64,000 nucleotides of DNA from Streptomyces sp. NBC_01351 (GTDB lineage: Bacteria > Actinomycetota > Actinomycetes > Streptomycetales > Streptomycetaceae): NCBI RefSeq assembly GCF_036237315.1, contig NZ_CP108356.1, positions 3,778,501 through 3,842,500 of the forward strand, given 5' to 3'. Positions 50,370 through 64,000 of this stretch are shown in pieces (positions within the stretch are counted from its first letter, which is position 1; every line of letters starts with the position of its first letter). The notes beneath the pieces were generated by a model. It was not told the DNA's origin. It did not search any database and was given only the letters and a program-made list of their open reading frames with translations. Position numbers and translations under genes: made by a program.

Positions 50370-51665
50370 CTACTTGTAGATGCGCAGCACCCGGCTGACG
50401 TCACGGACGTGGCCCAGCCCGCGCAGCTCCTCGAGCGCGCCGTGCAGGGCGCGCTCGGTCGCCGGGAAGGTGACGAAGACGACCCGCGCGTGCGATTCCG
50501 AGCCGTGCTGGTCGACCTTTCGGATCGAGACGCCGTGCCGCGCGAAAACGCCCGTCACCTGGGACAGGACGCCCGGCGCTTCGTCGACCACGGTGCGGAT
50601 GTAGAAGGAGTGCCGGAGGTCCTGCGTGGGCCGCAGCACCGCGGGGGTGCCGACGGGGACGCGGCGGTGCGTGCCGCGGACCAGGTGGTCGGCCGCGGCG
50701 ACGACGTCACCCAGGATGGACGACGCCGACGGGCGGGGCCCGGCGCCGTGGCCGTAGAACATGAGCTCCCCGGCGGCGGAGGTGGTGACGAACACCGCGT
50801 TGAAGCTGTCGCGGACGCTCGCCAGCGGGTGGTCGCGTTCGATGAGGGCAGGGAACACCTGCGCCCCGATCTCCTCGCTTCCCTCCGGGCCGTCGGCGAA
50901 CCGCTCGGCCACGGCGAGGAGCTTGATGTCGAACCCGAACTGCGCGGCCAGTTCGAAGTCTTCGAGTTCGAGACCGACGATCCCCTCCCGGTCGACGTCG
51001 TCGGCGACGACGGACCGGTTGAAGGCCAGCGACGCGAGGATCGCGAGCTTGGACGCCGCGTCGTGGCCCTCGATGTCGGCGGTCGCGTCGGGCTCGGCCA
51101 GCCCGAGTTCCTGAGCGTTCGCCAGGGCCTCCTCGAAGCTCAGGCCGTCGCCCATCATGCGGGTGAGCATGAAGTTGGTCGTGCCGTTCACGATGCCGGC
51201 GACTCGGGTCACCTCCTCGCCGAGCAGCGACTCCCGGATGGGCCGCAGGATCGGCACCGCGGCCACGGCCGCGGCCTCGAAGAAGAGGTCGACCCCCGCC
51301 CGGTCGGCCACGGCGAACAGCTCGGGGCCGGCGCTGCCGATGAGCTGCTTGTTGGCGGTCACGACCGGCTTGCCGGCCTCCAGCGCCGTCGTGATCAGCT
51401 CGCCGACCGGCGTCGTGCCGCCGATGAGCTCGACGACGATGTCGACGTCCTCCCCCTTGACGACGTCGAGGGGGTCTCCCGTGAACAGATCCGCGTCCAG
51501 TTTCGGCGAGCGCGGTTTATCCGGATTGCGCACCGCGATACGCACCAGATCGAGGGAAATTCCCGTCACGGCCTCGATCGACGCACGCCGTTCGACGAGC
51601 AACTCGGCGAAAGCCTCACCGACGGTTCCGCACCCCAGCAGCCCAATTTTGACATGGTTTACCAT
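50370..51665 (-). CDS. hom: Homoserine dehydrogenase, cluster-associated copy
   Basis: A 431-residue enzyme. The NAD(P) motif is VKIGLLGCGTVGEAFAELL. The catalytic domain has VVTANKQLIGSAGPELFAVA, FEAAAVAAVPILRPIRESLL, GIVNGTTNFMLTRMMGDGLS and EPDATADIEGHDAASKLAIL with the catalytic lysine. A C-terminal ACT domain is present (HSFYIRTVVDEAPGVLSQVT), so threonine feedback is possible. In Streptomyces the housekeeping gene is normally next to thrC and thrB. Here hom stands alone at the end of a biosynthetic cluster, behind a terminator and so probably with its own promoter. It could supply homoserine or act as a drug-resistant target copy. AGGA lies eight bases before the ATG. Confidence 0.9.
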   Translation of the reverse strand: MVNHVKIGLLGCGTVGEAFAELLVERRASIEAVTGISLDLVRIAVRNPDKPRSPKLDADLFTGDPLDVVKGEDVDIVVELIGGTTPVGELITTALEAGKPVVTANKQLIGSAGPELFAVADRAGVDLFFEAAAVAAVPILRPIRESLLGEEVTRVAGIVNGTTNFMLTRMMGDGLSFEEALANAQELGLAEPDATADIEGHDAASKLAILASLAFNRSVVADDVDREGIVGLELEDFELAAQFGFDIKLLAVAERFADGPEGSEEIGAQVFPALIERDHPLASVRDSFNAVFVTTSAAGELMFYGHGAGPRPSASSILGDVVAAADHLVRGTHRRVPVGTPAVLRPTQDLRHSFYIRTVVDEAPGVLSQVTGVFARHGVSIRKVDQHGSESHARVVFVTFPATERALHGALEELRGLGHVRDVSRVLRIYK

Positions 51666-51751
51666 GGGGAAAATCCTACATGCCCGGGCCGTACGCCAGA
51701 TGGAATACCGGCGATTTCTCAGAGTGCGAGACGGCGCCCCGATCGGCAACT

Positions 51752-51799
51752 CGTTCCGCCGAAGACGCCCCCTTTCCCGGGGACGTCTTCGGCGGAACG
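51752..51799 (-). terminator. Terminator between the flavin reductase gene and hom
   Basis: CGTTCCGCCGAAGACG (51752-51767) pairs perfectly with CGTCTTCGGCGGAACG (51784-51799) around a 16-nt loop that can itself pair CCCC with GGGG. It lies in the 139-bp gap and separates hom from the biosynthetic operon. Confidence 0.85.
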
Positions 51800-51804
51800 G
51801 ACCA

Positions 51805-52347
51805 CTACGCGGGCCTTCGGGGAGCCCCCACCAGGAGAGAGGGGTCGCGGTACGGAAGATGGGTTCCGAAACTGCGTCGGTGGTAGACCAGCGGCGCCTT
51901 GTCCCCGGTCGATTCCGCGGCGTCGACGCGGCCGAGGACGATGACGTGGTCGCCACCGTCGACCAGGTCGTCCACGGTCGAGGCGACCCAGGCCGACGCC
52001 TGCGAAATACGCGGGAGACCTGCGTCGATGCTCCAACTCGTCCCGTAGAACTTGTCGATGCCGCCCTTGGCCGCGAACGCCATCGCCAGGTCGTCCTGGT
52101 CGGCGCCGAGCACGTTGAGTCCAAAACGCCCGGACTCGCGAATCATGTCGAGCGTCCGCGACCTCCTGTCGAGGGCGATCAGCACCATCGCGGGATCGAT
52201 CGAAAGCGAGGTGAACGCGCTGACGGTCGCCCCGAAAGGCTGACCGTCGTCGGACATGCCCGTCACGATCGACACGGGTGTGGCGACGCAGGACATGGCC
52301 TCCTTGAACATGCCCTGCAATGTGGACTCGGTTTCAGTGGTTTTCAT
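51805..52347 (-). CDS. Flavin reductase of the gene cluster
   Basis: A 180-residue flavin reductase-domain protein: FKEAMSCVATPVSIVTGMSD, FGATVSAFTSLSIDPAMVLI, SRTLDMIRESGRFGLNVLGA and a final LVYHRRSFGTHLP. This is the HpaC/ActVB-like group that supplies reduced FMN or FAD to a separate monooxygenase. The luciferase-like monooxygenase in the same operon is the obvious partner. The ATG at 52347 lies inside the end of the preceding gene (14-base overlap) with GGAAGGA upstream. Confidence 0.9.
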   Translation of the reverse strand: MKTTETESTLQGMFKEAMSCVATPVSIVTGMSDDGQPFGATVSAFTSLSIDPAMVLIALDRRSRTLDMIRESGRFGLNVLGADQDDLAMAFAAKGGIDKFYGTSWSIDAGLPRISQASAWVASTVDDLVDGGDHVIVLGRVDAAESTGDKAPLVYHRRSFGTHLPYRDPSLLVGAPRRPA

Positions 52348-53158
52348 CGTCGCTTCCTTCCCGACATGCCCGACGGTCCCCCGTATGCACAAATGCCTCG
52401 TCCGTCGGACTCATTTCAAGACCGAAACCCAGACCCGGTATTTCCTCGAAAAACCACGACCTGAGGAGTTCGCGATATTCGATGGAATCGAATACCTCCT
52501 CCAGGGCCTCGTCCACGGCACGGACGAGCTCCTTGTCCTCGTGCCGCATCATGAATCCGTAGAACTCTCCGCCCAGCCGCACGTCGAGCAGCCTGAGGTC
52601 CGCGCGCGCCGCGCCGCCCTGCAGGAGGGTCCTGAGGATCACCTCGTCCGCGACCATGGCGCCGATGTTCCGATCTCCGAGGAACGCTTCCCAGGCGGCG
52701 CCGATGGACGGCACCCCGACGAAGGCGTACTCGAAGCCGACGTCGTCCCTGCCCTCCAGCGCGGCCTGGCTCGTCGAGCCCTGGATGCCGACCACGCGCA
52801 GCGCCCCCGACGGCGACGGGTACGCCTCCGCCTTCACCACGATGCGGTGAGAGGTGCGGAAGATCGGCCGGCTGAAGGCGTGGCGGGCCTGCCGCGCCTC
52901 CGTGATCGTCGTCGATCCGCACTCGATGTCGATGAGGCCGTCGGCGAGCTGCCCCTCCCTCGTGGAGGAGGTCACCTCGACCGCCTCCAGCGGGGGAACC
53001 CGGTCCGCACCGCCGAAGACCCTGGCGAGGACCAGGTGCGCCAGGTCGACGGAATAGCCGACGGGCCGGAAGTCCCCGGTCGGCGCGTACGAGAACGGCG
53101 GGGTGTTCCGTTGAAGACCCACGCGGATACTCGCGCTGTCACGAGCGCTACTGAACAA
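52334..53158 (-). CDS. Family 3 solute-binding-like protein without signal peptide
   Basis: A 274-residue protein with the family 3 amino-acid-binding fold: SIRVGLQRNTPPFSYAPTGD, RPVGYSVDLAHLVLARVFGG, LIDIECGSTTITEARQARHA, VVGIQGSTSQAALE, GAMVADEVILRTLLQGGA. Unlike true ABC receptors it has no signal peptide or lipobox. The likely TTG start at 53158 overlaps the thioesterase stop by 11 bases and no permease or ATPase is nearby. A cytoplasmic enzyme or sensor built on this fold, as in cyclohexadienyl dehydratases, is an alternative to transport. The start is uncertain. Confidence 0.78.
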   Translation of the reverse strand: MFSSARDSASIRVGLQRNTPPFSYAPTGDFRPVGYSVDLAHLVLARVFGGADRVPPLEAVEVTSSTREGQLADGLIDIECGSTTITEARQARHAFSRPIFRTSHRIVVKAEAYPSPSGALRVVGIQGSTSQAALEGRDDVGFEYAFVGVPSIGAAWEAFLGDRNIGAMVADEVILRTLLQGGAARADLRLLDVRLGGEFYGFMMRHEDKELVRAVDEALEEVFDSIEYRELLRSWFFEEIPGLGFGLEMSPTDEAFVHTGDRRACREGSDDENH

Positions 53159-53927
53159 GGGTGGTCACCATTTCCGCGGAGTCCTGGAGCGCGAGCCCCG
53201 TCACGAGGCCGAGCAGGGGCGTGGGGTCCGTCAGCAGGTACATGTGTCCGCCGGGAACGGTGGACAGCGAGAAGTGCCGTGTCGTCAGCGACGCCCAGCC
53301 GGCCATGAATCCGGGGGCCAGCAGGCGGTCCCGCTCCGCCGCCACGCAGTACAGGTCGACGGGCAGTGCGCGCGGGGTCAGCGAGGGGAACTCGCGGGAC
53401 ATCCACGCCAGATCCGCGGCGAGGGTGTCCGCGTAGAACTCGCCGACCGCACGCGCCGCGGAGCCGCCGACCGCGCCGAGGATCTCCTCGGCGTTCTCGC
53501 AGCCGTCCCCCTGCGCGAACAGCCGGCCGGCCGCCTCCAGGCTGTACGGGGGCGGCGCCTGCGCGGACAGCACCACCCGGACGCGGCGGCGGTAGACCGC
53601 CCAGATCGCGTCGGCGACGGCCCACGCGACGGTCGCCCCCATGCTGTGCCCGAGAAGCACGATGTCGTCGTAGGGCAGCGCGCAGATCCCCCGGGCGATC
53701 TCCAGCGCGAGATCGTCCAGGTGGTCCGTGAGCGGTTCCCCGATGCGGTCCTCACGGCCCTTGAGCTGGACCAGGACCACGTCCGTCGTCGGCGCGAGCG
53801 CGTCCGGCCAGCTCCGGAAGGCGGCCGTGCCCCCACCGGCGTGGTGGAAGCAGACGACCACGCGCCGATGCCCGTGGGAGTACCTCCTCAGGAGCGGCGT
53901 GCCGGTTGCCCGGATGTGCCGGGTCAT
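53148..53927 (-). CDS. Type II thioesterase
   Basis: A 259-residue alpha/beta hydrolase of the NRPS/PKS editing class: VVVCFHHAGGGTAAFRSWPD, LVQLKGREDRIGEPL in place of the usual PGR motif, nucleophile Ser in DDIVLLGHSMGATVAWAVAD, and catalytic His in VPGGHMYLLTD. It either hydrolyses mis-primed carriers or, since no type I TE is present in the cluster, may release the product. Its ATG overlaps the stop of the gamma-carbonic-anhydrase-like gene (ATGA). Confidence 0.93.
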   Translation of the reverse strand: MTRHIRATGTPLLRRYSHGHRRVVVCFHHAGGGTAAFRSWPDALAPTTDVVLVQLKGREDRIGEPLTDHLDDLALEIARGICALPYDDIVLLGHSMGATVAWAVADAIWAVYRRRVRVVLSAQAPPPYSLEAAGRLFAQGDGCENAEEILGAVGGSAARAVGEFYADTLAADLAWMSREFPSLTPRALPVDLYCVAAERDRLLAPGFMAGWASLTTRHFSLSTVPGGHMYLLTDPTPLLGLVTGLALQDSAEMVTTLVQ

Positions 53928-54490
53928 CGGCTGCCGGTCCGCGTTTCCGACGACTCGTGGCCCGGTACCTCTACCCGGCGGAGCCCCGTGCGGTACCGCG
54001 CGGCCAGCTCCCGGTATTCGGCGGCCGTCTCGTCCAGCACCGCCACGTCGCTGTCGCTCAGCTTCATCAGGACGGACGCGGGAGTGCCCGCGATCAGGCT
54101 CCGGGGCGGAAGCAGCGGTCCGGCGCTCAGCACCACCCCTGCGGAGACCCGCGAACTCTCCCCGACCGAGACGCCGTTCAGCAGGACCGCGCCAATGCCG
54201 ACGACGGAGCCGTCACCGACCGAGCAGCCGTGCAGCAGGGCGCCGTGGGCGATCGTCACGTCGCGGCCGACGACCAGCGGATGGTCGGGGTCGGAGTGCA
54301 GCATCGAGTGGTCCTGGACGTTCGACCCCCGGCCGATGCGGACGCCGCCCTTGTCCCCGCGGATCGTCACGCCCGGCCAGAGGCTGACGTCCGCCTCGAT
54401 CTCCACGTCTCCGATGACCACCACGTCGTCGAACGCGTAGACGCTCGGGTGGATGCGCGGCTGGACACCCTGGAAGCTGTACGTCTTCAT
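53924..54490 (-). CDS. Gamma-carbonic anhydrase-like left-handed beta-helix protein
   Basis: A 188-residue hexapeptide-repeat protein. The repeats span about residues 12-150 (VYAFDDVVVIGDVEIEADVS, LWPGVTIRGDKGGVRIGRGS). The conserved histidines of the YrdA/CaiE gamma-CA family are present (NVQDHSMLHSD, VTIAHGALLHGCSVGDGSVV), so a bound metal is likely. A C-terminal helix follows. It might hydrate CO2, act as an acyltransferase, or handle a decarboxylation step next to the PKS; none is proven. The 4-base spacing to the monooxygenase gene and ATGA overlap with the thioesterase gene place it firmly in the operon. Confidence 0.88.
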   Translation of the reverse strand: MKTYSFQGVQPRIHPSVYAFDDVVVIGDVEIEADVSLWPGVTIRGDKGGVRIGRGSNVQDHSMLHSDPDHPLVVGRDVTIAHGALLHGCSVGDGSVVGIGAVLLNGVSVGESSRVSAGVVLSAGPLLPPRSLIAGTPASVLMKLSDSDVAVLDETAAEYRELAARYRTGLRRVEVPGHESSETRTGSR

Positions 54491-54493
54491 CTC

Positions 54494-55696
54494 TCAGGCC
54501 TCTTTCCGGATCAGCGACGAGAGCCGGGTGAGGCTCTTCATGACGTCGTCCTTGGACAGTCCGAAATCGACCAGGCAGGCGATCTCGTTCACGCCCATCG
54601 CGGAGAAGTCCTCCAGCGTCGTACGGGCCCGGTCCACATCGCCGATGAGCGAACTCGACGAGACGTACCGCTGGAACACCATCTCCAGGAATTCGTCGCG
54701 GTCGTCGCCGAGGTTCTGCAGGGTCTGGGACTTGTCCTGCGACTCGCTCTGCCCCGAGGTGGCGTGCTGGGAGACGAAGCCGCTGAGGTACTGGACCAGG
54801 GCGGGCCTGACCCGTTCCACCGCTTCCTGCGTGTCGACACCGACGTAGGTGTGCAGCATCAGGGAGACCGTGCCGGAGTCGGGATCGAAGCCGGCGCCGG
54901 CGCGCGCCTCCCGGTAGATCTCGATCCGCTTCGCGAGTTCGGCCGGGCCGAAGTTGATGAGCGCCGACAGGACGTTCAGGCCGTTCTCGCCGGCGAACCG
55001 CCACGCGTCGGGGTTCTTCGACGTGGTCAGCCAGACGGGCAGCTCGGGCTGCACGGGGCGGGGGAAGGTCAGGATGTCGTGGACCTCTCCCAGCGGATCG
55101 GTCCGCCCGACGGCCGTTCCGCGCCACAGGCTCTGCAGCTGCTCCCGCGAGCGGTTGAGCACCTGCGACCTGTCCTCGTACCCGTCCGGGCCGAGGACGA
55201 AGTCCCGCGCGTGCCAGCCGGGCGCCACCGCGAGGTCCACCCGGCCGCCCGACAGGTTGTCGACGAGCGCCCACTCCTCCGCCACGCGCAGGACGTCGTG
55301 GAGGGGGAGGTTGACGCTTCCCGCACGGATGCGGACCTTCTCGGTGATCATCGCCAGTGCCGCGCCCAGTACGGACGGGTTGGGATACGCGCCGCCGACC
55401 TCGGTGAAGTGCCGCTCCGGGGTCCAGATCGCGGTGAAGCCGGCTTCGTCGACGAAGCGCGAGACGTCCAGCAGGAGGTCGTACGGGTCGCCGTCCCCGC
55501 TGAGACCGGAGAAGAAGATGACGCCCAGGTCGGGCAGTCCCGTGGACGGGCGGCGTTCGGCCGGCTCGGCGGGGGTCACGGGCGCGGGCGCGGCGGCCGA
55601 CGTGGGCGTGGCCGCGGGAGTGGGCGCCGAACCGGACTTCAGTTGGGCCTTCAGCCTCGCCAGCCGGCCGGCGTCGAGATAGGTGCTGTCAGACAT
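54494..55696 (-). CDS. Luciferase-like flavin monooxygenase (MupA/Atu3671 natural-product family)
   Basis: A 400-residue protein. After a carrier-linker-like N-terminus (SDSTYLDAGRLARLKAQLKS, then Ala/Pro) comes a bacterial-luciferase-type TIM barrel: DLGVIFFSGLSGDGDPYDLL, FTAIWTPERHFTEVGGAYPN, VRIRAGSVNLPLHDVLRVAE, VDLAVAPGWHARDFVLGPDG, LPVWLTTSKNPDAWRFAGEN. This family usually occurs as a domain inside NRPS/PKS proteins and hydroxylates carrier-bound substrates. Here it is a separate gene whose ATG overlaps the PKS stop by eight bases. Reduced flavin probably comes from the cluster flavin reductase. The site of oxidation is not known. Confidence 0.9.
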   Translation of the reverse strand: MSDSTYLDAGRLARLKAQLKSGSAPTPAATPTSAAAPAPVTPAEPAERRPSTGLPDLGVIFFSGLSGDGDPYDLLLDVSRFVDEAGFTAIWTPERHFTEVGGAYPNPSVLGAALAMITEKVRIRAGSVNLPLHDVLRVAEEWALVDNLSGGRVDLAVAPGWHARDFVLGPDGYEDRSQVLNRSREQLQSLWRGTAVGRTDPLGEVHDILTFPRPVQPELPVWLTTSKNPDAWRFAGENGLNVLSALINFGPAELAKRIEIYREARAGAGFDPDSGTVSLMLHTYVGVDTQEAVERVRPALVQYLSGFVSQHATSGQSESQDKSQTLQNLGDDRDEFLEMVFQRYVSSSSLIGDVDRARTTLEDFSAMGVNEIACLVDFGLSKDDVMKSLTRLSSLIRKEA

Positions 55697-58600
55697 GTGC
55701 GGGCTCCTCAAGCAGCATGGCCGTGATCACGTTCGTGGCCGCCGAGACCGAGCTGTTCTCGTAGAAGTCACGGACGGAGAGGTCGAATTCGAAGGTCTCG
55801 CGCAGCTTGTTGATCAGCTGGATCGCCATGAGCGAGTTGCCGCCGAGTTCGAAGAAGCCGAGGTCGTCGGCCGCGTCCGACGAGCCGAGGAAGCTCTCGA
55901 AGATCTGGCCGACGATCAGCCGGATCTCCTCGGTCGCCGCGTCGACACCGGCGCCTTGCACCTCGGCGGCGGGTGCAGCCGCGGCCGCAGCCGCAGGTGC
56001 CTGCGCCGCTGCCGGTGCGTCCGTGGCCGGGGCACCGGTCGACGGGGCCGGGACCGTGCTCACCACGGCGGATTCCTGCCTGGCCAGGAGGAAACCGAGC
56101 GTCGGCTCCACCCAGTGGGCCTGCTTGTCGAAGGCGTAGGTCGGCAGGGACACCATCCGCCCCGCCGTCGCGTACTCCCCGATGCGCACCTCGGGGTCGG
56201 AGGCCCAGCCGAGGGCCACCGCGTCCGCGAACGACTCGTCCTCGTGGTCCGGCTCGGCCAGCGTCTGGGCGAGTTCCAGGACCGCGCCGGACTCCGATCC
56301 CGCGTTGGCACGGATCAGGTTGCTCATCGACCGGCCGGAGCCGATCTCGACGAACCGTCGCACGCCGTGCTCGCGCAGCGTTCGGACCGACCCCGCGAAG
56401 TCGACGCCCCGGATGAGGTGGTCCGCCCAGTAGTGCGGGTTCCTGGCCTCGTACCCGGTGAGGATCGCGCCGGTGATGTTCGATACCAGGGGGATCCGTG
56501 GCTCCTGGAAGTCGACGGTCTTCAGGAACGCGAGGAACTCCCGCGCGCCGTCCTCCATCAGCGGCGAGTGGAAGGCGTGCGAGGTCGCGAGCCGCTGGTG
56601 GGAGATGCCCGCCTCCACCGCCCGTGCGATCGCCTGCTCGATGCCCTGGTGGGTTCCGGACAGGACGAACTGCTGCGGGGAGTTGGTCGCCGCGATCACC
56701 AGGACGCCGGCGTCGAGCAGCTCGCCGAACGGCTCCAGCCGGCTGACGGCGAGCATCGCTCCGGGGGTGCAGCGCGCCATGGCCCTCGACCGCCGCACCA
56801 CCAGCTCCGCCGCCGTGCGCAGGTCGAAGACCCCGGCCACGGTGGCGGCGACGACCTCGCCGAGGCTGTGCCCGAAGAGGTAGCGGGGCCGCACGCCCGC
56901 GTCGATGAGGGCGGTCGCCAGCGCGTACTCGACGGCGAAGAGGAGCGGCTGCGCCACGGAGGTGTCGGAAGTGTCGGCGCCGGTGGCGTCCGTCTCCCCG
57001 TCGGAGCGCAGGTGGCTCCGCAGGTCGACGTCCGTGTGCGCGTTCACCGCGGCGACCGCTTCGTCGAGCCGGCGGGCGAAGGACGCGTTCTTCGAGGCGA
57101 GTACGGAACCCATGCCCGAGCGCTGGGTTCCCTGGCCCGCGAAGACGAAGCACACCTCGTTCGCGTCCGTCTCGGATCCCACGTGGTACCGCTCGGCCTT
57201 CAGCCGTGAGACCGCCTCCGCACGGTCCACGACGGCCAGCGAGGCACGGTGGGGATGGAGCGTCCTGCCGACGCGCAGCGTGTGCGCGTACTCGGCCGGC
57301 GAGGCGTCGGGGTCCGCCGCGAGGTGCTTCGCCAGTTCGGCCGCCTGCCGGCGCAGCGCCTCTTCGGACCTCGCCGAGAAGGTGAGGATGCTCGGACCGC
57401 CGGCGGGCCCGGAAGGTCCGGCGGGTTCGGCGGGCCCTGCCGGTGTCCTCTCGAAGCTCCGGAGGATGACGTGGCCGTTGGTGCCGCCCATGCCGAAAGC
57501 GCTCACGCCGGCCCAGTGCGTGTCGTCGCCTTCGAGCGGCCGTCCCTCGGTGGTCACGAAGTAGCGCGAGCCGTCCAGTTCGAGCGCCGGGTTGAGTTCG
57601 CGCACGTTCACGGTCGGCGGCACGTACTTGTGCTTCAGCACCAGCGCCGCCTTGATCAGGCCGACGATGCCCGCGGCGATGTTGAGGTGCCCGAAGTTGC
57701 CCTTGAGCGAGCCGATTCCGCACGGATCGCCGTCGGTTCCGTACGCCTGCTTGATCGCCTCGATCTCGATGGGGTCGCCGAGCGCCGTCCCCGTCCCGTG
57801 CGCCTCGATGTACGTGATGTCCGTCTGCTTGGCGCCGGAGATCGCGAGGGCGTCGCTCAGGACGCCGACCTGGCCGGAGACGCTCGGGGCGGTGAAGCTC
57901 GCCTTCTGCGCTCCGTCGTTGTTGACCGCCGACCCGGCGATGACCGCCTGGATGTCGTCGCCGTCGGCGATCGCGTCGCGCAGCCGCTTCAGCAGGACGA
58001 GCCCGAGGCCGTTGGTGAACACGGTCCCGTTGGCCTCGGCGTCGAACGGCCTGCAGGTGCCGTCCGGGGACAGCACGCCGCCGACCTGGTACCGGTAGCC
58101 GGCGTGCTGGGGGACGCGTACGTACACCGCGCCCGCGATCGCCGCGTCGCATTCGTTCAGCAGCAGGCTCTGGACGGCCGAGTGGACGGCGACGAGCCCG
58201 GTCGAGCACGCGGTCTGCACGTTCACACTGGGGCCGCGCAGGTTCAGCTTGTGGGAGATCCGGGTGACCAGGAAGTCCTTGTCGTTGCCGTGGCGCACGA
58301 CCATCTCACCGAACGAGTCGACGAGGTCCGGGCGGCTCAGGACCCCGAAGAGGTACGTGCTCATCCCCGAGCCGGCGAAGACGCCGATCCTCTGCTCGGT
58401 GCGGTGCGGATCGATGTTGGCCCGCTCCAGCAGCGCGACGGACTTCTCCAGCATGAGGCGCTGCTGGACGTCGAGGATGTCCGCCTCGCGCGAGGAGTAG
58501 CCGAAGTAGGGGGCGTCGAAGTCCGCGAGACCGTCCAGGACTCCGGCCCGCTTGACGTAGTCCGGCCGGGAGCTCTGGCCGGCCGGTACCCCGGCCGCCG

Positions 58601-58745
58601 CGACTTCGGCATCGGTCAGATCGGTGATGGCGCTCTCGGCGTCCACCAGCTTCTGCCAGAACTCGTCGACGTCCGCCGCCTGTGGAAGGCGGCATTCCAT
58701 GGCGACGATCGCGATCAGGTCGTCGTCATCGCTGTGCATGTTCAT
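55689..58745 (-). CDS. Type I PKS module KS-AT-ACP (malonyl-type AT)
   Basis: A 1018-residue single module. The KS spans about residues 8-430 with Cys180 (VQTACSTGL), His316 (EAHGTGTALGDP) and His353 (GNFGHLNIAAG). The AT spans about 530-830 with FVFAGQGTQRSGMG, Ser627 in FGHSLGE and HAFH at 723-726, the malonyl-CoA signature. A linker and Ala/Pro hinge lead to an ACP (about 935-1012) with Ser971 in LGGNSLMAIQLI. No KR, DH, ER, MT or TE is present, so the beta-keto group should remain. The ATG at 58745 is chosen, with GGATGGGA upstream. It probably extends an aminoacyl group delivered by the A-T protein encoded 64 bases upstream. Confidence 0.95.
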   Translation of the reverse strand: MNMHSDDDDLIAIVAMECRLPQAADVDEFWQKLVDAESAITDLTDAEVAAAGVPAGQSSRPDYVKRAGVLDGLADFDAPYFGYSSREADILDVQQRLMLEKSVALLERANIDPHRTEQRIGVFAGSGMSTYLFGVLSRPDLVDSFGEMVVRHGNDKDFLVTRISHKLNLRGPSVNVQTACSTGLVAVHSAVQSLLLNECDAAIAGAVYVRVPQHAGYRYQVGGVLSPDGTCRPFDAEANGTVFTNGLGLVLLKRLRDAIADGDDIQAVIAGSAVNNDGAQKASFTAPSVSGQVGVLSDALAISGAKQTDITYIEAHGTGTALGDPIEIEAIKQAYGTDGDPCGIGSLKGNFGHLNIAAGIVGLIKAALVLKHKYVPPTVNVRELNPALELDGSRYFVTTEGRPLEGDDTHWAGVSAFGMGGTNGHVILRSFERTPAGPAEPAGPSGPAGGPSILTFSARSEEALRRQAAELAKHLAADPDASPAEYAHTLRVGRTLHPHRASLAVVDRAEAVSRLKAERYHVGSETDANEVCFVFAGQGTQRSGMGSVLASKNASFARRLDEAVAAVNAHTDVDLRSHLRSDGETDATGADTSDTSVAQPLLFAVEYALATALIDAGVRPRYLFGHSLGEVVAATVAGVFDLRTAAELVVRRSRAMARCTPGAMLAVSRLEPFGELLDAGVLVIAATNSPQQFVLSGTHQGIEQAIARAVEAGISHQRLATSHAFHSPLMEDGAREFLAFLKTVDFQEPRIPLVSNITGAILTGYEARNPHYWADHLIRGVDFAGSVRTLREHGVRRFVEIGSGRSMSNLIRANAGSESGAVLELAQTLAEPDHEDESFADAVALGWASDPEVRIGEYATAGRMVSLPTYAFDKQAHWVEPTLGFLLARQESAVVSTVPAPSTGAPATDAPAAAQAPAAAAAAAPAAEVQGAGVDAATEEIRLIVGQIFESFLGSSDAADDLGFFELGGNSLMAIQLINKLRETFEFDLSVRDFYENSSVSAATNVITAMLLEEPAHV

Positions 58746-58809
58746 CCATGTCCCATCCAGTACAGGGGTGCTTGCCAGGGGTGTCCGGCGGATCAGGGCC
58801 GGGCACCCC

Positions 58810-60687
58810 TCAGAGCTGACGGGAGCGCCTGGCCGACAGCACACGGCGCCGTCCGGCGGCGCCGGGGGCAGCCGCCGCGGTGCTCGGTGCGTTGCCGCCG
58901 GGCTCCTTCGTCATGGCTTCGAGGAATCGACGCTGAGCATTGAAGGAGGCGTGCTCGAAGAGTCGGACGAGCGGGAAGCGGACGCCGAACTCGGCTTGGA
59001 TCTCCGCGTGGAGGACGGCGATCGTCAGGGAGGTTCCGCCCACGCCGAAGAAGGTGGATTCGCGGTCGGCCAGCCGCGCCGCGCCGTTGCCCGTAACGGC
59101 GAGCCAGATGCGTTCGAGCCGGTCGGGCACCGGGCCGGTCTTACGGCCAGGGCCTCCCGTGCCGATGGCGCGTCGGGCCCGGTCCTGGACGTGGGCGCGG
59201 GCGACTTCCGCGAGCGCCTTGCGGTCGACCTTGCCGTTGGGGAGCTTGAGCAGTTCGGGCACGAACAGGAACGCCGACGGGAGCATGACGCTCATCAGAC
59301 GCCCGTTCAGGTAGTCGCGGAGGTCCTGCTCGGCCGTCGCATCGCCTTCCAGGACCGCGACGATGACCTTGGTGAAACGATCCTCCTGAGCGCACACGAA
59401 GACGTCGCGGACACTCGGGTGCGACTGGATCGCGGAGCGCACCTCCTGCAGCTCGATCCGGACACCCGCGATCTTGATCTGCTCGTCCGCCCGGCCGAGG
59501 ATCTCCAGCCCTCCTTGCCCGGTCCGGCGGCCGAGATCGCCCGTCGGATAGGCGACGATGCGCTCTCCGCCCACGTGGATCTCCACGAAGGGGGAAACGA
59601 TCCGGCCGTCGACGAGGTAGCCGTGCGAGGGATGGTCCGCCGCGATGAAGATCTGGCCGACGGCGTCGTCCGCGCAGAGCCGCTTGTCGTCGTCCAGGAC
59701 GTAGCTCGTGGACTGCGGAAGGTTCCGGCCCACCTGCTGGATCCCGGACGTCACGCCCTGCGGCACCCGGTAGAAGTGCTGGGCCAGCGTCGTCTCGGTC
59801 GGACCGTAGAGGTTGACCACCTGGCAGCTCGGGAAGAGCTCCCGCCAGCGGCTCACCAGCGCGCCGTCCAGCGGCTCACCGGCGAAGAAGGCGTGGCGGA
59901 CGGTCGGTACCGGCTCCGTCTCGGCGGCTCCGGCCGTCCACAGCTTGCCGAGCGAGGGAACCAGGTGCAGAGCCGTGATCCGCCGGCTCCGCAGGAAGTC
60001 CAGCACGCCGTCGGCATCGAGGTGCAGTTCGTCCGGAACGCACAGTGCGGCACCGGAGATCAGGGGCGTCAGGGCGTCCCGGAACCAGACGTCGAACGAC
60101 AGGTTGGTGAGGTGCGCGAAGCGGTCGTCCGGCCCGATCGAGAATTCGTCGGACTGCCACCGCAGGAACAGCGACAGGCCCGTGTGGCTGCCGATGATCG
60201 CCTTGGGCTTGCCCGTCGACCCGGAGGTGAAGGCGACGTACGCGTGGTCCGCGTCGTCGAGGACCGCGGGCGCGGAGCCTTCGCCGGCCGGTGCGGGGTC
60301 GGGGTCGGGCCGCAGGGCGATCCGCCGGCCGTCCGCGCACGAGATGGTCGCGCGGACGGGACCGGAGTCCAGCATGGTCTCGCGTCGCACGTCGGGCAGG
60401 GCCTCGTCGACGAGCATGACGATCGAGCCCGCCATCCACACGCCGAAGACGGCCACGACCACGGACGCGCTGCGGCGGCCGAGAACCGCCACGACGTCGC
60501 CCTTGCCGATTCCGCGCGCCTCCAGATCGCCCGCCACTTCGCGGGCGCGCTCCAGAAGTTCGGTGTAGGTGATCGATTCGGAAGAAGAGGTGATCGCGGT
60601 CGCGTCCGCGTATTTCTCGCAGGCCCGCAGCAAAAGGGTGTCGACCGCCTGCACGGCTACTCTCTCCATCTGATGAGGTTTCCTCAC
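58810..60687 (-). CDS. Freestanding NRPS adenylation-thiolation didomain
   Basis: A 625-residue A-T protein without condensation domain, suited to load a starter amino acid. A-domain motifs: AFTSGSTGKPKA (152-163), FDV with Asp199 at the alpha-amino-binding position, NLYGPTETT (292-300), YPTGDLGRR (380-388) and NGKVDRKAL with Lys486. The carrier Ser553 is in FFGVGGTSLTIAVL. The C-terminus is Ala/Arg-rich. Asp199 suggests an alpha-amino acid substrate; the remaining pocket does not match a code I can name. Amino-acid loading onto the adjacent KS-AT-ACP is the simplest reading. The GTG at 60687 has GAGG seven bases upstream. Confidence 0.93.
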   Translation of the reverse strand: MRKPHQMERVAVQAVDTLLLRACEKYADATAITSSSESITYTELLERAREVAGDLEARGIGKGDVVAVLGRRSASVVVAVFGVWMAGSIVMLVDEALPDVRRETMLDSGPVRATISCADGRRIALRPDPDPAPAGEGSAPAVLDDADHAYVAFTSGSTGKPKAIIGSHTGLSLFLRWQSDEFSIGPDDRFAHLTNLSFDVWFRDALTPLISGAALCVPDELHLDADGVLDFLRSRRITALHLVPSLGKLWTAGAAETEPVPTVRHAFFAGEPLDGALVSRWRELFPSCQVVNLYGPTETTLAQHFYRVPQGVTSGIQQVGRNLPQSTSYVLDDDKRLCADDAVGQIFIAADHPSHGYLVDGRIVSPFVEIHVGGERIVAYPTGDLGRRTGQGGLEILGRADEQIKIAGVRIELQEVRSAIQSHPSVRDVFVCAQEDRFTKVIVAVLEGDATAEQDLRDYLNGRLMSVMLPSAFLFVPELLKLPNGKVDRKALAEVARAHVQDRARRAIGTGGPGRKTGPVPDRLERIWLAVTGNGAARLADRESTFFGVGGTSLTIAVLHAEIQAEFGVRFPLVRLFEHASFNAQRRFLEAMTKEPGGNAPSTAAAAPGAAGRRRVLSARRSRQL

Positions 60688-61103
60688 TGATCTGCCTCGA
60701 ACGAGGCTTTCGTTTCCTCAGTGGGTCAGGGCGAGGGCGGCCCTCGCGGTCTCGTCTGTCCGGCGGGAGCACGCGGCGACTTCGGCGCGGCACGGCAACG
60801 GACGACGCGGTCCGGCGTCCGACCAGGGCCTGGGGCCGGGGACACCGAACGGGGGGAGCGACCCAGGCCCGGACCGGGCCGGCTGGGAAAGCGCTCACGT
60901 GGGTCTGACGCCGCGCGGTCCGATCGCCCGGAGGCACTGCGGCGGCGGGTGGGGCTGGTGCTGGGAATTCGACGGATGGTTCGACACGGCCGGTACGTCG
61001 TCACCGAGTCGGCGGGTGGCCCATGCGGCCACTGCCGTGACCGACGCCGGGGACACGGACCGGCCCTCGGAGCGGCCGTTTCCGGCCGATGGTCAGCCGG
61101 TGG
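60688..61103. other. 416-bp intergenic region upstream of the A-T / PKS operon
   Basis: No credible gene; the open frames here are Pro/Arg/Ser-rich shadows. It contains several GC hairpins such as GAGGGCGGCCCTC at about 60732-60744, and should hold the lysE terminator and the promoter of the A-T operon. Confidence 0.5.
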
Positions 61104-61736
61104 TCAGCTGGTGGTCTGCTGGAAGGTCGCCAGCACGATGGCGGCGAGCATGAACAGCGCGCCGAAGATCTTGTTCAGGGTGTTGACCTGGCTCTCGGTC
61201 TTCAGTCGGGTCGCGACCCGGGCCGCGAGTCCGGTGTATCCCGCCATCACCACGAGGTCCGTGAACGCCATGGTCAGGGCAACGGCGATGTACTGGGGAG
61301 CGAGCGGCATTCCCGAGGTGATGAACTGGGGGATCACCGCGAGCATGAAGATGTAGCCCTTGGGGTTGATCAGGTTGAGCGAAATCCCCTTGCCGATGAT
61401 CTCAAAGGAGCCGATACGCGGCTTCTCCTTTTCCCGGAGAGTAATCGGCGAGGCCTTGGAAAGCCACTGGGAAAGGCCAAGGTAGAACAGATAGGCAACG
61501 CCCGCCCACTTGAGCACGTTGAAGGCGATCGGCGACGCCTGGATCACCACGCCGAGCCCGACGACCACGGCGAGGAAGACCGCCCACAGGCCGATGACCA
61601 GGCCGATCGCACCGAGGTAGCCGCGCCGGAAGCCATAGTTCAGGCCGTTCGACATGGAGAATACAGAACCGGAACCCGGCGACAAGGAAAATATCCAAGA
61701 GGCCGCGAAACAGGTTATCCACACACTCATTGGCAT
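61104..61736 (-). CDS. LysE/RhtB-family amino-acid exporter
   Basis: A 210-residue protein with six hydrophobic segments. It starts PMSVWITCFAASWIFSLSPG with the family motif SPGSGSVFSMSNGLNYGFRR (residues 17-36), then IGLVIGLWAVFLAVVVGLGV, GVAYLFYLGLSQWLSKA and SLNLINPKGYIFMLAVIPQF. RhtB/LeuE members export homoserine, threonine and related amino acids. Next to a homoserine dehydrogenase and an amino-acid-loading NRPS it most likely exports the cluster product. The ATG at 61736 has GGGAGGG upstream; a second ATG two codons later is possible. Confidence 0.9.
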   Translation of the reverse strand: MPMSVWITCFAASWIFSLSPGSGSVFSMSNGLNYGFRRGYLGAIGLVIGLWAVFLAVVVGLGVVIQASPIAFNVLKWAGVAYLFYLGLSQWLSKASPITLREKEKPRIGSFEIIGKGISLNLINPKGYIFMLAVIPQFITSGMPLAPQYIAVALTMAFTDLVVMAGYTGLAARVATRLKTESQVNTLNKIFGALFMLAAIVLATFQQTTS

Positions 61737-62262
61737 GACTTTGAGCCCTCCCTCTCATGCATTTATGTGTGACCACCAAACACTTCTTCCCGGTGATCGC
61801 GACGCAGCATATACAGGCCACGCCGAGTGCCAGATGATCGGTCCACCATATGGATCCGGTGCAATCCATTCCACATCTGGTAAGAGATTCAACATAATTG
61901 AGTTCCCCAGTGCAACGTGGCGAGCCCGACCCACTCGGGCCGGCCGACAGCACGACCAGTCGGCCCATCGGGCACGTCAGGGCTGGTGCGCCGCGAATAC
62001 GGCGTAAGGCATTCCGGTTTTTGTGAGATATTCAACTTTATTCTATTTGCTCGAGCAATTGCGGAGTCGGCGGTTCCATGAGATTTGAGGTACCTGTCAA
62101 ACGATCGTCCGCCACTGTGAAATCGCCCCGGAGGCAGCCGCGGCGGGTGGCTCAATGTCGGTGTCGGCGTCGGTGTCGCCGGCCCCGGACATGCCGAAGC
62201 CGAGGGGCCCTCGATCCCGGCCCCTCGGCTTCTCGGCTGCTCGGCTGCTCCCCCGGCGGCTC
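61737..62262. other. 526-bp AT-richer intergenic region between YbaK and lysE genes
   Basis: No convincing gene. The stretch 61737-62090 is markedly less GC-rich than the surroundings (for example TTCAACATAATTGAG and TTCAACTTTATTCTATTTG), suggesting horizontally acquired or promoter DNA. Around 62158-62180 there is a short GTCGGT/GTCGGC hexamer repeat. It must carry the lysE promoter and possibly regulatory sites of the cluster. Confidence 0.5.
62196..62232 (-). terminator. Terminator after the YbaK gene
   Basis: GAAGCCGAGGGGCC (62196-62209) pairs perfectly with GGCCCCTCGGCTTC (62219-62232) around a 9-nt loop. Confidence 0.85.
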
Positions 62263-62739
62263 TCAGCCCGCGGAGATGGGCGCCACCGTCGGCGCGACGA
62301 TCCGTACGTAGTCCTGCGCGCGCATGACGACGGAGCGGTCCAGCCGCCCGGCGTTGAAGGCGATCTCCTCGTAGGACGCGAGGAAGTCCTCGTCCACGAT
62401 CACCGGCAGGCCGGCGGTCAGCCAGAACGGCGGGATGGCGCCGATGACGCAGCCGGTCAGCTCCTCGGCCAGTTCCGCGGGCGCGAAGCCTCCCTTGCGG
62501 CCGCCCGCGGCGGCGACGATCTTCTTGACGTCCGCACGCCGGTCACCCCCCAGTACGGCGAGCACCGCCGGGGAGTCGATCCCCTTCACCCTGCAGACGA
62601 GTGCCTTGGCGCCCTGCGCCACGGAGGTACCGCGCACGGCGGACACCTCCTCCGAGCGTCCCTCGGCGGGGTGCTCGATCGTGCGGTACTCGGCCTTCTC
62701 GCGGTCGAGAAGGCCGATGATCTGCTCAAACGGACTCAA
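62263..62739 (-). CDS. YbaK/ProX-type aminoacyl-tRNA deacylase
   Basis: A 158-residue YbaK/EbsC-domain protein: MSPFEQIIGLLDREKAEYRT, EEVSAVRGTSVAQGAKALVC with Lys45 at the conserved lysine position, AVLAVLGGDRRADVKKIVAA, CVIGAIPPFWLTAGLPVIVD, NAGRLDRSVVMRAQDYVRIV. Members hydrolyse wrongly charged tRNAs in trans. In a cluster for an unusual amino acid it could protect the producer from misincorporation. The TTG at 62739 lies 14 bases inside the preceding gene, so translation is coupled to it. A terminator follows. Confidence 0.85.
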   Translation of the reverse strand: MSPFEQIIGLLDREKAEYRTIEHPAEGRSEEVSAVRGTSVAQGAKALVCRVKGIDSPAVLAVLGGDRRADVKKIVAAAGGRKGGFAPAELAEELTGCVIGAIPPFWLTAGLPVIVDEDFLASYEEIAFNAGRLDRSVVMRAQDYVRIVAPTVAPISAG

Positions 62740-64000
62740 CTACGGGCTCCCTGGTGCTCGGTGTGCGTGTACGGCGGAGCGGGGCGGCGTAGCGCCGCTC
62801 CAACAGGCTGACGAAAGTGTCGACGAAGGGCGGCGGGGCGGCGGTCCAGGAACGCCAGTCGCGGGTCGCCTCGGCGAGGTAGGACATGCGGCGCATGTGC
62901 TTCCACGGCCCCTCACCCGTGGGAGAGGCGGGGTCCACGGGAACGTGGGCGCGCAGCGCTTCGAGGTAGTCGGCGTAGATCCCGCTGCCGAAGTTCACCC
63001 GGGCCACCCCGTGCGACGGGAGGACCGCGAGGTCGACCCTGGAGAGCGAACTGCCGCCGTGCACGACCAGTCCCCGGCCGCTCTCCTTCAACGTACCCAC
63101 GAGCGTCCGGATGAGCCCGTGGTCGATGACGGCGTGCCGGTGCTCGCGCGCGGGTTCCGTGTGGAAGACCTGCTCCCACAGCTGCGCCTTGCGCCGGGCC
63201 TTCGCCAACCTCCGCTCCAGCCATTCCACTTCGAGGTTGTCGAGCAGCGGCCGCTGGAAGACGGGGAGGGCCTCGCGGGCATCGCGGAAGACCGAGTGCA
63301 GCTGCTCCTCCTCGTCGCCCTCCATCGCCCGGCGGGCCACGGCGGCGACCAGCCGGTGCTCGGCCGAGTGAGCGGGGAATCCGACCTCCGTCAAAGACGC
63401 CACGACCCGGGTGCACGATTCCGCGAAGGCGTGCAGGTCGCCCTCCGAGGAGCGGTCGTCCAGCAGCTCGATCTCGGCCAGTGACCTGCGGGTGGAGGCG
63501 AAGCCGTAGTCGAAGCTGTGGAACTGGCCCACGTGACCCCCGATGAAGTCGAGGTCCGTGTCCTCGACGAAACGGGTGAAGTCGTCCTCGCTCGTCTTGG
63601 ACCACTTCCGCAGTCCCGCGCCGTCGATGGCCCCGATCTCGCCCTCGACGAGGACCCCGTACTGCCGCGCCAGCTTGGTTGCCGCGTTGGTGAACAGGAC
63701 GTTCTGGTGCAGCGTCCGGCCGGATCCGTCGGCCATGACCGAGTCGAACCCCGCCTCGCAGGCGGCGCGCACGACCTCGTAGTCGTCCGCGTGGTCCAAG
63801 TGCAGGCGCAGCCGCGAGCCGAGCTCGGTGTTGAGCCGGTCGACGTCCCGTTTCAACGTGCGGAAGACGCCGGTGACGGCCGCGAGCGGCCCCTCGTTCG
63901 CGCTCGGGGCGATGAACAGCAGGGCTTCCTGCGGCGAGATCTCGCAGTAGACCTCCTGCCGCGTGCGGGCGGAGAGCAGGGCGAAGGGCAGCAGCATGGA
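62726..64000 (-). CDS. Class II aldolase-like protein (N-terminus outside the window)
   Basis: The frame is open through the right edge, so the true start is probably beyond 64000; an ATG at 63997 exists but would cut the first strand of the barrel. Visible motifs are RLRLHLDHADDYEVVRAACE (zinc HxDH region), DSVMADGSGRTLHQNV, GVLVEGEIGAIDG, IGGHVGQFHSFDYG and LVVHGGSSLSRVDLAVLPSH, as in class II fructose-bisphosphate/tagatose aldolases. About 110 extra residues lie between the last two motifs, giving at least 424 residues. It may perform an aldol or retro-aldol step for the cluster; a role in primary metabolism cannot be excluded. It overlaps the YbaK gene by 14 bases. Confidence 0.75.
   Translation of the reverse strand, partial: SMLLPFALLSARTRQEVYCEISPQEALLFIAPSANEGPLAAVTGVFRTLKRDVDRLNTELGSRLRLHLDHADDYEVVRAACEAGFDSVMADGSGRTLHQNVLFTNAATKLARQYGVLVEGEIGAIDGAGLRKWSKTSEDDFTRFVEDTDLDFIGGHVGQFHSFDYGFASTRRSLAEIELLDDRSSEGDLHAFAESCTRVVASLTEVGFPAHSAEHRLVAAVARRAMEGDEEEQLHSVFRDAREALPVFQRPLLDNLEVEWLERRLAKARRKAQLWEQVFHTEPAREHRHAVIDHGLIRTLVGTLKESGRGLVVHGGSSLSRVDLAVLPSHGVARVNFGSGIYADYLEALRAHVPVDPASPTGEGPWKHMRRMSYLAEATRDWRSWTAAPPPFVDTFVSLLERRYAAPLRRTRTPSTREPVVESV

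What the first reader, a model, noticed from the sequence alone, without database searches (positions are those of the whole stretch)
50370..64000. Candidate gene cluster for a small toxic amino acid made from one amino acid and one malonyl unit
Seen: A-T didomain, single KS-AT-ACP module without reductive domains and with an HAFH (malonyl) AT, freestanding luciferase-like monooxygenase plus flavin reductase, type II TE, LysE/RhtB exporter, YbaK deacylase, extra homoserine dehydrogenase, mostly overlapping minus-strand genes. Known: 5-hydroxy-4-oxonorvaline (HON) is a Streptomyces antifungal amino acid built from aspartate and one acetate-derived carbon, and it inhibits homoserine dehydrogenase. 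Inference: loading Asp, condensing malonate, hydroxylating the alpha carbon and losing CO2 would give HON or a close relative. The exporter, editing factor and spare target enzyme would be self-protection.
Basis: partly seen in the sequence, partly recalled or inferred. Interest (0 to 1): 0.88.

Follow-up and report, generated by a model that had tools for sequence, protein, structure and literature searches.

The report
Gene cluster for an antifungal amino acid
A Streptomyces gene cluster looks like the so far unassigned machinery for 5-hydroxy-4-oxonorvaline or a close relative, a small antifungal amino acid that poisons homoserine dehydrogenase, and it carries its own spare copy of that target enzyme.

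Summary
A nine-gene minus-strand core (50370-61736) recurs in nine other loci from Streptomyces, Kitasatospora, Rathayibacter and Proteobacteria, six of its genes in 10 of 10 loci, among them an extra homoserine dehydrogenase (HSD). The HSD tree rejects one clade of cluster copies (AU p about 1e-7), best read as at least three separate recruitments beside orthologous biosynthetic genes. That is what protection of a target predicts, and HSD is the known target of 5-hydroxy-4-oxonorvaline (HON, RI-331). The A-domain pocket (DVRHFALLAK in 66 of 67 family members, the last cut short) is not the classical Asp code as I recall it, but Arg239/His278 fits side-chain-carboxyl activation, which HON needs. 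No further PKS/NRPS genes follow within 38 kb. Correction: YbaK belongs to a second, independent cassette with aldolase-like and SHMT-like genes, found without the HON core in six other Streptomyces genomes. Product and mechanism are inferred (0.65 for HON or a near homologue); no known producer genome could be compared, and no HON gene cluster appeared in the open-licence literature searched.

The parts
50370..51665 (-). extra homoserine dehydrogenase (proposed resistant/spare target)
   Evidence: PF00742, PF03447, ACT; second genome copy 47% identical; present in 10 of 10 loci; cluster copies in three places of the tree
51805..52347 (-). flavin reductase (FMNH2 supply for the monooxygenase)
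   Evidence: PF01613 138.6 bits; other reductases in the Rathayibacter and Pseudomonas loci
52334..53158 (-). solute-binding-protein-like protein without signal peptide; nearest solved structures are amino-acid-binding-type proteins, best 2ia4/2vha
   Evidence: PF00497; PDB and NCBIfam matches; in 10 of 10 loci
53148..53927 (-). type II thioesterase
   Evidence: PF00975; in 8 of 10 loci
53924..54490 (-). gamma-carbonic-anhydrase / PaaY / CaiE-like hexapeptide-repeat protein
   Evidence: PF00132; NF050158 and TIGR02287 matched below their cut-offs; in 10 of 10 loci
54494..55696 (-). MupA/Atu3671-family FMN-dependent luciferase-like monooxygenase (proposed alpha-hydroxylase)
   Evidence: TIGR04020 402 bits, cut-off 244
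55689..58739 (-). KS-AT-ACP single PKS module, no reductive domains, HAFH (malonyl-type) AT
   Evidence: PF00109, PF02801, PF00698, PF00550; motifs in the translation
58810..60669 (-). A-T didomain, pocket code DVRHFALLAK
   Evidence: PF00501, PF13193, PF00550; code invariant in the family
61104..61736 (-). LysE/RhtB-type exporter
   Evidence: PF01810; homoserine/homoserine-lactone efflux family 177.7 bits, below its cut-off 209; in 7 of 10 loci
62263..62739 (-). YbaK-type aminoacyl-tRNA deacylase: part of a neighbouring second cassette, not of the core
   Evidence: PF04073; travels with the SHMT-like and aldolase-like genes in 6 other genomes
62726..64000 (-). class II aldolase-like gene of the second cassette (true end 64519, beyond the window), followed upstream by an SHMT-like gene (64516-66129)
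   Evidence: PF01116, PF00464; L001/L009

Best explanation
The core at 50370-61736 makes 5-hydroxy-4-oxo-L-norvaline (HON, RI-331) or a very close homologue. Proposed steps: the A-T didomain activates L-aspartate through its beta-carboxyl group, leaving the alpha-amino-acid head free; the KS-AT-ACP adds one malonyl unit without reduction; the FMN-dependent monooxygenase, fed by the flavin reductase, hydroxylates the alpha carbon of the beta-keto thioester; a thioesterase (or the PaaY-like gamma-carbonic-anhydrase homologue where the locus has no thioesterase gene) releases the acid, which loses CO2, perhaps in the solute-binding-like protein, to give HON. LysE exports it and the extra homoserine dehydrogenase protects the producer. 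Shown here: gene content, domain content, conservation, and that the cluster HSDs are not one clade. Inferred: substrate, order of reactions, product, protection.
For: Domain logic and no further modules. Six core genes in 10 of 10 loci. HSD in 10 of 10 loci, beside another HSD in every genome tested (9 of 9: own; eight others; G396 not tested). HSD tree: starred branches force at least 3 changes of label; AU test against one clade of the nine labelled copies p = 8.9e-8, of the six actinobacterial ones p = 2e-68, although the KS-AT-ACP tree groups Rathayibacter with Streptomycetaceae. [quoted passage not shown] The pocket code is invariant in the family and has Arg239/His278. The solute-binding-like protein is nearest to amino-acid-binding proteins, a glutamate/aspartate family among its NCBIfam matches, far below cut-off.
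Against: No compound, assay or known-producer genome. The pocket code also occurs outside the family (38 of 53 further rows, many of them C-A-T modules), so it does not by itself prove Asp. The beta13-beta14 loop keeps the ordinary length by eye, unlike VinN. Glutamate as starter (6-hydroxy-5-oxonorleucine) is not excluded by sequence. The thioesterase is missing from 2 of 10 loci. The HSD tree has long branches that meet and one row of unlike composition, and its tool notes that three changes may be one gain and two losses. The glycine-loss signature in cluster HSDs is not exclusive (19 of 97 further actinobacterial and 12 of 34 further proteobacterial homologues have it). HSD could in principle serve supply rather than protection.
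Confidence: 0.65

Rival explanations
1. The same assembly line makes a different HSD- or aspartate-pathway antimetabolite: for example the glutamate homologue 6-hydroxy-5-oxonorleucine, or the unhydroxylated or further oxidised Asp product.
For: Pocket code also outside the family; DxRH pockets are recalled for iso-Glu, iso-MeAsp and aminoadipate alike; the monooxygenase reaction is inferred only from its family.
Against: HSD is the recurrent spare enzyme and HON is the known natural HSD inactivator; Asp gives exactly HON after hydroxylation and CO2 loss.
Confidence: 0.2
2. HSD is a supply or tailoring enzyme (homoserine or aspartate semialdehyde as a building block) and not a protected target.
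For: Catalytic motifs are kept in the nine cluster copies aligned, so it is probably active; it sits inside the operon.
Against: HSDs from different lineages, at different operon positions; no enzyme in the core that would evidently use homoserine.
Confidence: 0.12
3. All genes from homoserine dehydrogenase to the SHMT-like gene form one pathway, the product being built from a beta-hydroxy amino acid made by the SHMT/aldolase pair and protected by YbaK.
For: The genes are on one strand and adjacent; an HSD (58% identical) also lies beside the SHMT cassette in G179.
Against: SHMT-like, aldolase and YbaK gave no hit in the nine other HON-type loci as fetched; six other genomes have the cassette and no A-T orthologue; a 526-bp gap separates YbaK from LysE.
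Confidence: 0.08

Closest known systems
5-hydroxy-4-oxonorvaline (HON, HONV, RI-331) of Streptomyces, inactivator of homoserine dehydrogenase
   Same: Predicted product; target enzyme duplicated in the cluster; genus
   Different: No gene cluster for it was found in the open-licence literature searched (listings); chemistry not shown here
VinN/BolO-type adenylation of the beta-carboxyl of (methyl)aspartate for beta-amino acid starters (vicenistatin, bolagladin)
   Same: Proposed activation of the Asp beta-carboxyl, D235 kept
   Different: VinN uses Ser299/Arg331 and a shortened beta13-beta14 loop and loads a separate ACP, followed by PLP decarboxylation of the alpha-carboxyl (PMC7756342 and PMC11253843, passages); here Arg at 239, Ala at 331, fused T domain, no PLP decarboxylase in the core, alpha-amino-acid head kept
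MupA/Atu3671-family luciferase-like monooxygenases of PKS/NRPS clusters (TIGR04020)
   Same: Member by NCBIfam cut-off, next to PKS/NRPS genes
   Different: Freestanding and in a one-extension pathway; reaction not shown
Target-duplication self-protection in antibiotic clusters
   Same: Second copy of the presumed target in the operon
   Different: Here the same biosynthetic core carries target copies from at least three separate places of the HSD tree
Fluorothreonine transaldolase (TIGR04506) and the tRNA-deacylase protection known from S. cattleya (recalled; one search gave listings only)
   Same: The neighbouring cassette combines an SHMT/transaldolase-like enzyme, an aldolase-like enzyme, a YbaK editing protein and usually an EamA exporter
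   Different: Below the equivalog cut-off (168 of 650 bits); product unknown

Membership tests
HON biosynthesis | one amino-acid-activating module plus one malonyl-adding module without reduction and no further modules | tested here: met
HON biosynthesis | A domain activates Asp at the beta-carboxyl | tested here: inconclusive
   code DVRHFALLAK; fits side-chain-carboxyl activation by recalled codes only
HON biosynthesis | production of HON | not testable with these tools
   needs culture and LC-MS
HON biosynthesis | same gene set in known producers (S. akiyoshiensis) | not testable with these tools
   taxon exists; not named among the listed hits, whose lists are capped
Target-duplication self-protection | extra copy of the target in the cluster besides another copy elsewhere | tested here: met
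   10 of 10 loci; second copy in 9 of 9 genomes tested
Target-duplication self-protection | the extra copy is inhibitor-insensitive | not testable with these tools
   loop glycine lost in the cluster copies, but also in some others
VinN-type A domain | Arg331 and shortened beta13-beta14 loop | tested here: not met
   Ala at 331; loop length compared by eye only; criterion from PMC11253843 passages
Classical alpha-Asp A domain | DLTKVGHIG-like code (recalled) | tested here: not met
MupA-family luciferase-like monooxygenase | TIGR04020 cut-off 244.45 bits | tested here: met
   402.3 bits
Fluorothreonine transaldolase (neighbouring gene) | TIGR04506 cut-off 650 bits | tested here: not met
   168.1 bits

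The most novel reading that the evidence does not exclude
A widespread, laterally moving assembly line treats an amino acid's side chain as a polyketide starter: Asp is loaded by its beta-carboxyl, extended once, hydroxylated and decarboxylated, the last step in a cytosolic solute-binding protein turned enzyme (as cyclohexadienyl dehydratase once was), giving a free alpha-amino acid antimetabolite. Each lineage that received it recruited its own spare homoserine dehydrogenase. In the window's strain it sits beside a second cassette for a threonine-like amino acid with its own tRNA editing factor, so that threonine starvation and a threonine mimic could act together.
Probability: 0.25. Interest if true: 0.88.

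Novelty: new variant of a known kind. Interest (0 to 1): 0.72.

Why it matters
HON is an old antifungal lead whose genes, as far as the searched open-licence library shows, had not been assigned. The finding gives a testable gene set, points to further candidate producers (S. atriruber, Kitasatospora phosalacinea, Rathayibacter iranicus and Marinobacterium by locus; Noviherbaspirillum by A-T and HSD hits on contigs of equal length only), offers a route to side-chain-extended amino acids, and shows a target enzyme recruited repeatedly beside one pathway, which is unusually strong genomic evidence of mode of action.

Tried and rejected
YbaK as part of the HON core: rejected. One large pathway including SHMT and aldolase: rejected for the core, kept as a minor rival. 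Co-inheritance of HSD with the biosynthetic genes: rejected by the AU test. A glycine-to-larger substitution as a clean resistance signature: looked striking in 20 sequences, but 19 of 97 further actinobacterial homologues and 12 of 34 further proteobacterial ones share it, so it is only suggestive. Confirming recalled DxRH codes of side-chain-carboxyl-activating domains in print: no usable hit (passages of PMC2174460 and PMC6562525), so they remain recall. Plasmid-borne relatives of the A-T protein: none at E up to 1e-100. Passages of PMC9293202 dealt with HON synthesis by chemists and added nothing on genes. No structure prediction was run.

Rows and limits: of the 79 loci only L033-L040 were analysed as members; L041 (37% A-T) was compared and left out; the other 70 (39% or less) were not examined. 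The synteny scripts report the best query per ORF at E up to 1e-8. Upstream sequence is short in L034 and L035 (about 3 kb before A-T) and limited in L040 (about 7.5 kb), so a missing neighbour there is weak evidence. Duplicate records of one species (G081, L031, L032, L114, G246, L115 = the S. atriruber locus L033) are counted once. The sampled genome sets overlap; searches are taken to be the same 394 genomes. In one search nearly every genome matched at E 1e-40 because A domains are common; orthology was read from identity and score. Shared contig lengths come from lists that I copied out by hand. In the HSD tree the labels 'cluster' and 'housekeeping' were set by me from position; the L147 copy was not in the tree; the partial Rathayibacter copy (L132) and the G179 copy were in the tree but in no group. 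The 'cluster-type' protein sets were cut by identity, not by seen context.
Full report
Place and content. The window is bases 3778501-3842500 of the main contig of an 8.9-Mb genome. Its group is written by the tools only as a code; the named close relatives are Streptomyces. Nine minus-strand genes from 61736 down to 50370 form the core: LysE exporter, A-T didomain, KS-AT-ACP, luciferase-like monooxygenase, gamma-carbonic-anhydrase-like hexapeptide protein, thioesterase, solute-binding-like protein, flavin reductase, homoserine dehydrogenase (HSD). From the A-T gene to the flavin reductase neighbouring genes overlap or lie within about 70 bases. There are 416-434 bases between A-T and LysE (by start choice), 139 between HSD and flavin reductase, and 526 between LysE and YbaK. 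None of the core genes has a TTA codon or an internal stop. The PKS protein has KS, AT and ACP only; TACSTG, GHSLGEV, HAFH and LGGNSL are read directly in the translation, so a malonyl unit added without reduction is the plain reading.

Boundaries. Beyond LysE lie YbaK (62263-62739), a class II aldolase-like gene (62726-64519, crossing the window end) and an SHMT-like gene (64516-66129, window numbering), overlapping one another. No further relative of the A-T, KS-AT-ACP, monooxygenase, HSD, SHMT-like, aldolase, YbaK or LysE proteins was found in the 50.4 kb before or the 37.8 kb after (tblastn, E up to 1e-5).

Distribution. In the genus sample 1 of 245 other genomes has a true A-T orthologue (74% identity; the next best by E-value is 39%), in the family sample 4 of 393 (E up to 1e-120), in the class sample 0 of 295; the samples overlap. 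In the large protein collection a family of freestanding A-T proteins, 42-100% identical over most of their length, covers Streptomyces, Kitasatospora, Streptacidiphilus, Rathayibacter, Burkholderia, Pseudomonas, Noviherbaspirillum and Marinobacterium; the next full-length hits drop to about 37-39%.

Conserved core. Across the 10 loci (window, L033-L040, L147), A-T, KS-AT-ACP, monooxygenase, gamma-carbonic-anhydrase-like, solute-binding-like and HSD genes are present in 10 of 10; the thioesterase in 8 of 10 (absent from the S. atriruber locus and one K. phosalacinea locus); LysE in 7 of 10, with an EamA exporter beside the S. atriruber locus. The flavin reductase varies: a relative of the window's in 6 of 10, another Flavin_Reduct protein upstream in Rathayibacter, an FAD/NAD-domain reductase in Pseudomonas and, by sequence resemblance only, in Marinobacterium; none was recognised in L040. 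A phosphopantetheinyl transferase lies near the Rathayibacter and Marinobacterium loci. The order of the shared genes is the same, except that HSD and reductase lie upstream in Rathayibacter.

The spare target. The window's genome has a second HSD, 47% identical, about 1 Mb away. Eight further genomes each have at least two, Rathayibacter three (nine handles, one species twice). In a tree of 20 HSDs the nine labelled cluster copies fall in three places (Streptomycetaceae, Rathayibacter beside its own HSDs, Proteobacteria); starred branches force at least three changes. Holding all nine together is rejected (p-AU 8.9e-8), and so is holding the six actinobacterial ones together (2.2e-68). Cautions given by the tool: long branches meet, one row (Marinobacterium) has an unlike make-up, and three changes may also be one gain and two losses. 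The KS-AT-ACP tree in contrast puts Rathayibacter beside the Streptomycetaceae. The best reading is that one biosynthetic core has gained an HSD repeatedly. This is expected if the product attacks HSD, and hard to explain otherwise. Along the same line, 14 longest-contig lengths are shared between A-T and cluster-type HSD hits (8 actinobacterial, 6 proteobacterial), which suggests but does not prove linkage.

HSD sequence. The catalytic motifs (recalled) are kept in the nine cluster copies. A loop that in the nine housekeeping copies reads GA or GG before x-P has no glycine there in any cluster copy: AA in Streptomycetaceae, TA in Rathayibacter, VS in Proteobacteria; the G179 copy has AS. The five PDB HSDs shown in alignment have GA, GG, GG, AG and GA. 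In larger sets, cut by identity and not by context, 18 of 18 actinobacterial cluster-type and 85 of 86 proteobacterial cluster-type proteins (the last without a readable motif) lack it, as do 4 of 5 in a 57-58% group; but so do 19 of 97 further actinobacterial and 12 of 34 further proteobacterial homologues, whose genomic context I did not see. It is a lead, not proof of resistance.

The A domain. Aligned by motif to the GrsA positions (numbering recalled), the pocket reads DVRHFALLAK in 27 of 27 aligned members and in 66 of 67 family proteins, the last being cut short. This is not the classical Asp code (DLTKVGHIG, recalled). Arg239 with His/Asn278 is what I recall for domains that activate a side-chain carboxyl (aminoadipate, iso-Glu, iso-methylAsp); I could not confirm this in print. 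The review PMC11253843 (passages) reports that a switch of TycA to a beta-amino acid always selected Val at 236, which is also present here, but VinN's Arg331 and shortened loop are not. The same code occurs in 38 of 53 more distant hits, many of them C-A-T modules, so the code alone does not settle the substrate.

Mechanism. Loading Asp by its beta-carboxyl, one malonyl extension, alpha-hydroxylation by the monooxygenase, release and decarboxylation give exactly this molecule. Beta-carboxyl adenylation is described for VinN (3-methylaspartate) and proposed for BolO with aspartate (PMC7756342, passages). Because two loci lack the thioesterase, release may fall to the PaaY-like gamma-carbonic-anhydrase homologue, or to an enzyme elsewhere. 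The solute-binding-like protein shows no hydrophobic leader in the window or in the ORFs of L036, L037, L039 and L147 whose starts were printed, so it should be cytosolic. Its best solved relative is 2ia4/2vha (recalled as an aspartate/glutamate binder), its NCBIfam matches include the glutamate/aspartate family far below cut-off (60.6 of 375 bits; the best match, a lysine/arginine/ornithine family, is also below), and cyclohexadienyl dehydratase, a decarboxylating enzyme of the same fold (recalled), is among weak PDB matches (E 5e-4). It might bind and decarboxylate the free 2-amino-5-hydroxy-4-oxo-adipate, or sequester HON; both are guesses.

The second cassette. SHMT-like, aldolase-like and YbaK genes lie together in 6 other genomes of the genus (3 of 245 in the genus sample, 4 of 393 in the family sample, one in both), with an EamA exporter recognised in 5 of 6 (by Pfam in L137; by NCBIfam below cut-off in L138; by sequence resemblance in three). 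None of the six has an A-T orthologue, and none of the five A-T-bearing genomes of those samples matches the SHMT-like protein at E up to 1e-100. In G179 the cassette has an HSD 58% identical to the window's. Two toxic-amino-acid systems on one pathway, side by side in this strain, is therefore a fair reading, and their combination a testable idea.

Literature. Searches for HON under several names and for HSD with gene-cluster terms listed no paper that, by title and start of abstract, describes its gene cluster. The library holds open-licence papers only; one search listed 20 of 74 and one search listed 20 of 1,141 papers, mostly unrelated.

Verdict. Observation confirmed; interpretation partly supported and sharpened. 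HON or a near homologue 0.65; a different antimetabolite from the same line 0.2. Novelty: new variant of a known kind.

Noticed in passing
62263-64000 and on to 66129 (L001, L009): A separate SHMT-like / class II aldolase-like / YbaK cassette, also in six other genomes of the genus, usually with an EamA exporter; resembles the logic of fluorothreonine production and editing.
   Followed up: partly
L150:12967-18783; similar-looking genes in L137 and L148: Beside this cassette in some genomes lie a TPP-enzyme N-terminal domain protein (looks like phosphonopyruvate decarboxylase), an HMGL-like protein and a class V aminotransferase: possibly a phosphonate-like pathway.
   Followed up: partly
L138:4411-5802: A homoserine dehydrogenase 58% identical to the window's lies next to the SHMT cassette in G179, which has no HON core.
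   Followed up: partly
L033:19219-19527, L036:20122-20421, L147:3483-3842; protein P0126: A small protein of about 100-120 aa (looks like an antibiotic-biosynthesis-monooxygenase domain) follows the HSD gene in three loci; in P0126 a PF03992 domain is fused to the HSD.
   Followed up: no
protein P0280: Rhodococcoides yunnanense has an HSD of the proteobacterial cluster type (60% identical to the Pseudomonas one), a possible further HON-type locus in an actinobacterium.
   Followed up: no
L041: An Oxalobacteraceae locus with a longer A-T protein (37%) and a KS-AT-ACP (45%) without hits to the rest of the core: a related but different small pathway.
   Followed up: no
proteins P0069-P0121: The exact pocket code DVRHFALLAK is common in C-A-T modules of other bacteria; finding one with a known product would settle the substrate.
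   Followed up: no
L132 (Rathayibacter, contig C1): A third, partial HSD copy very close to the cluster HSD, with the same loop residues, lies elsewhere in the Rathayibacter genome.
   Followed up: no
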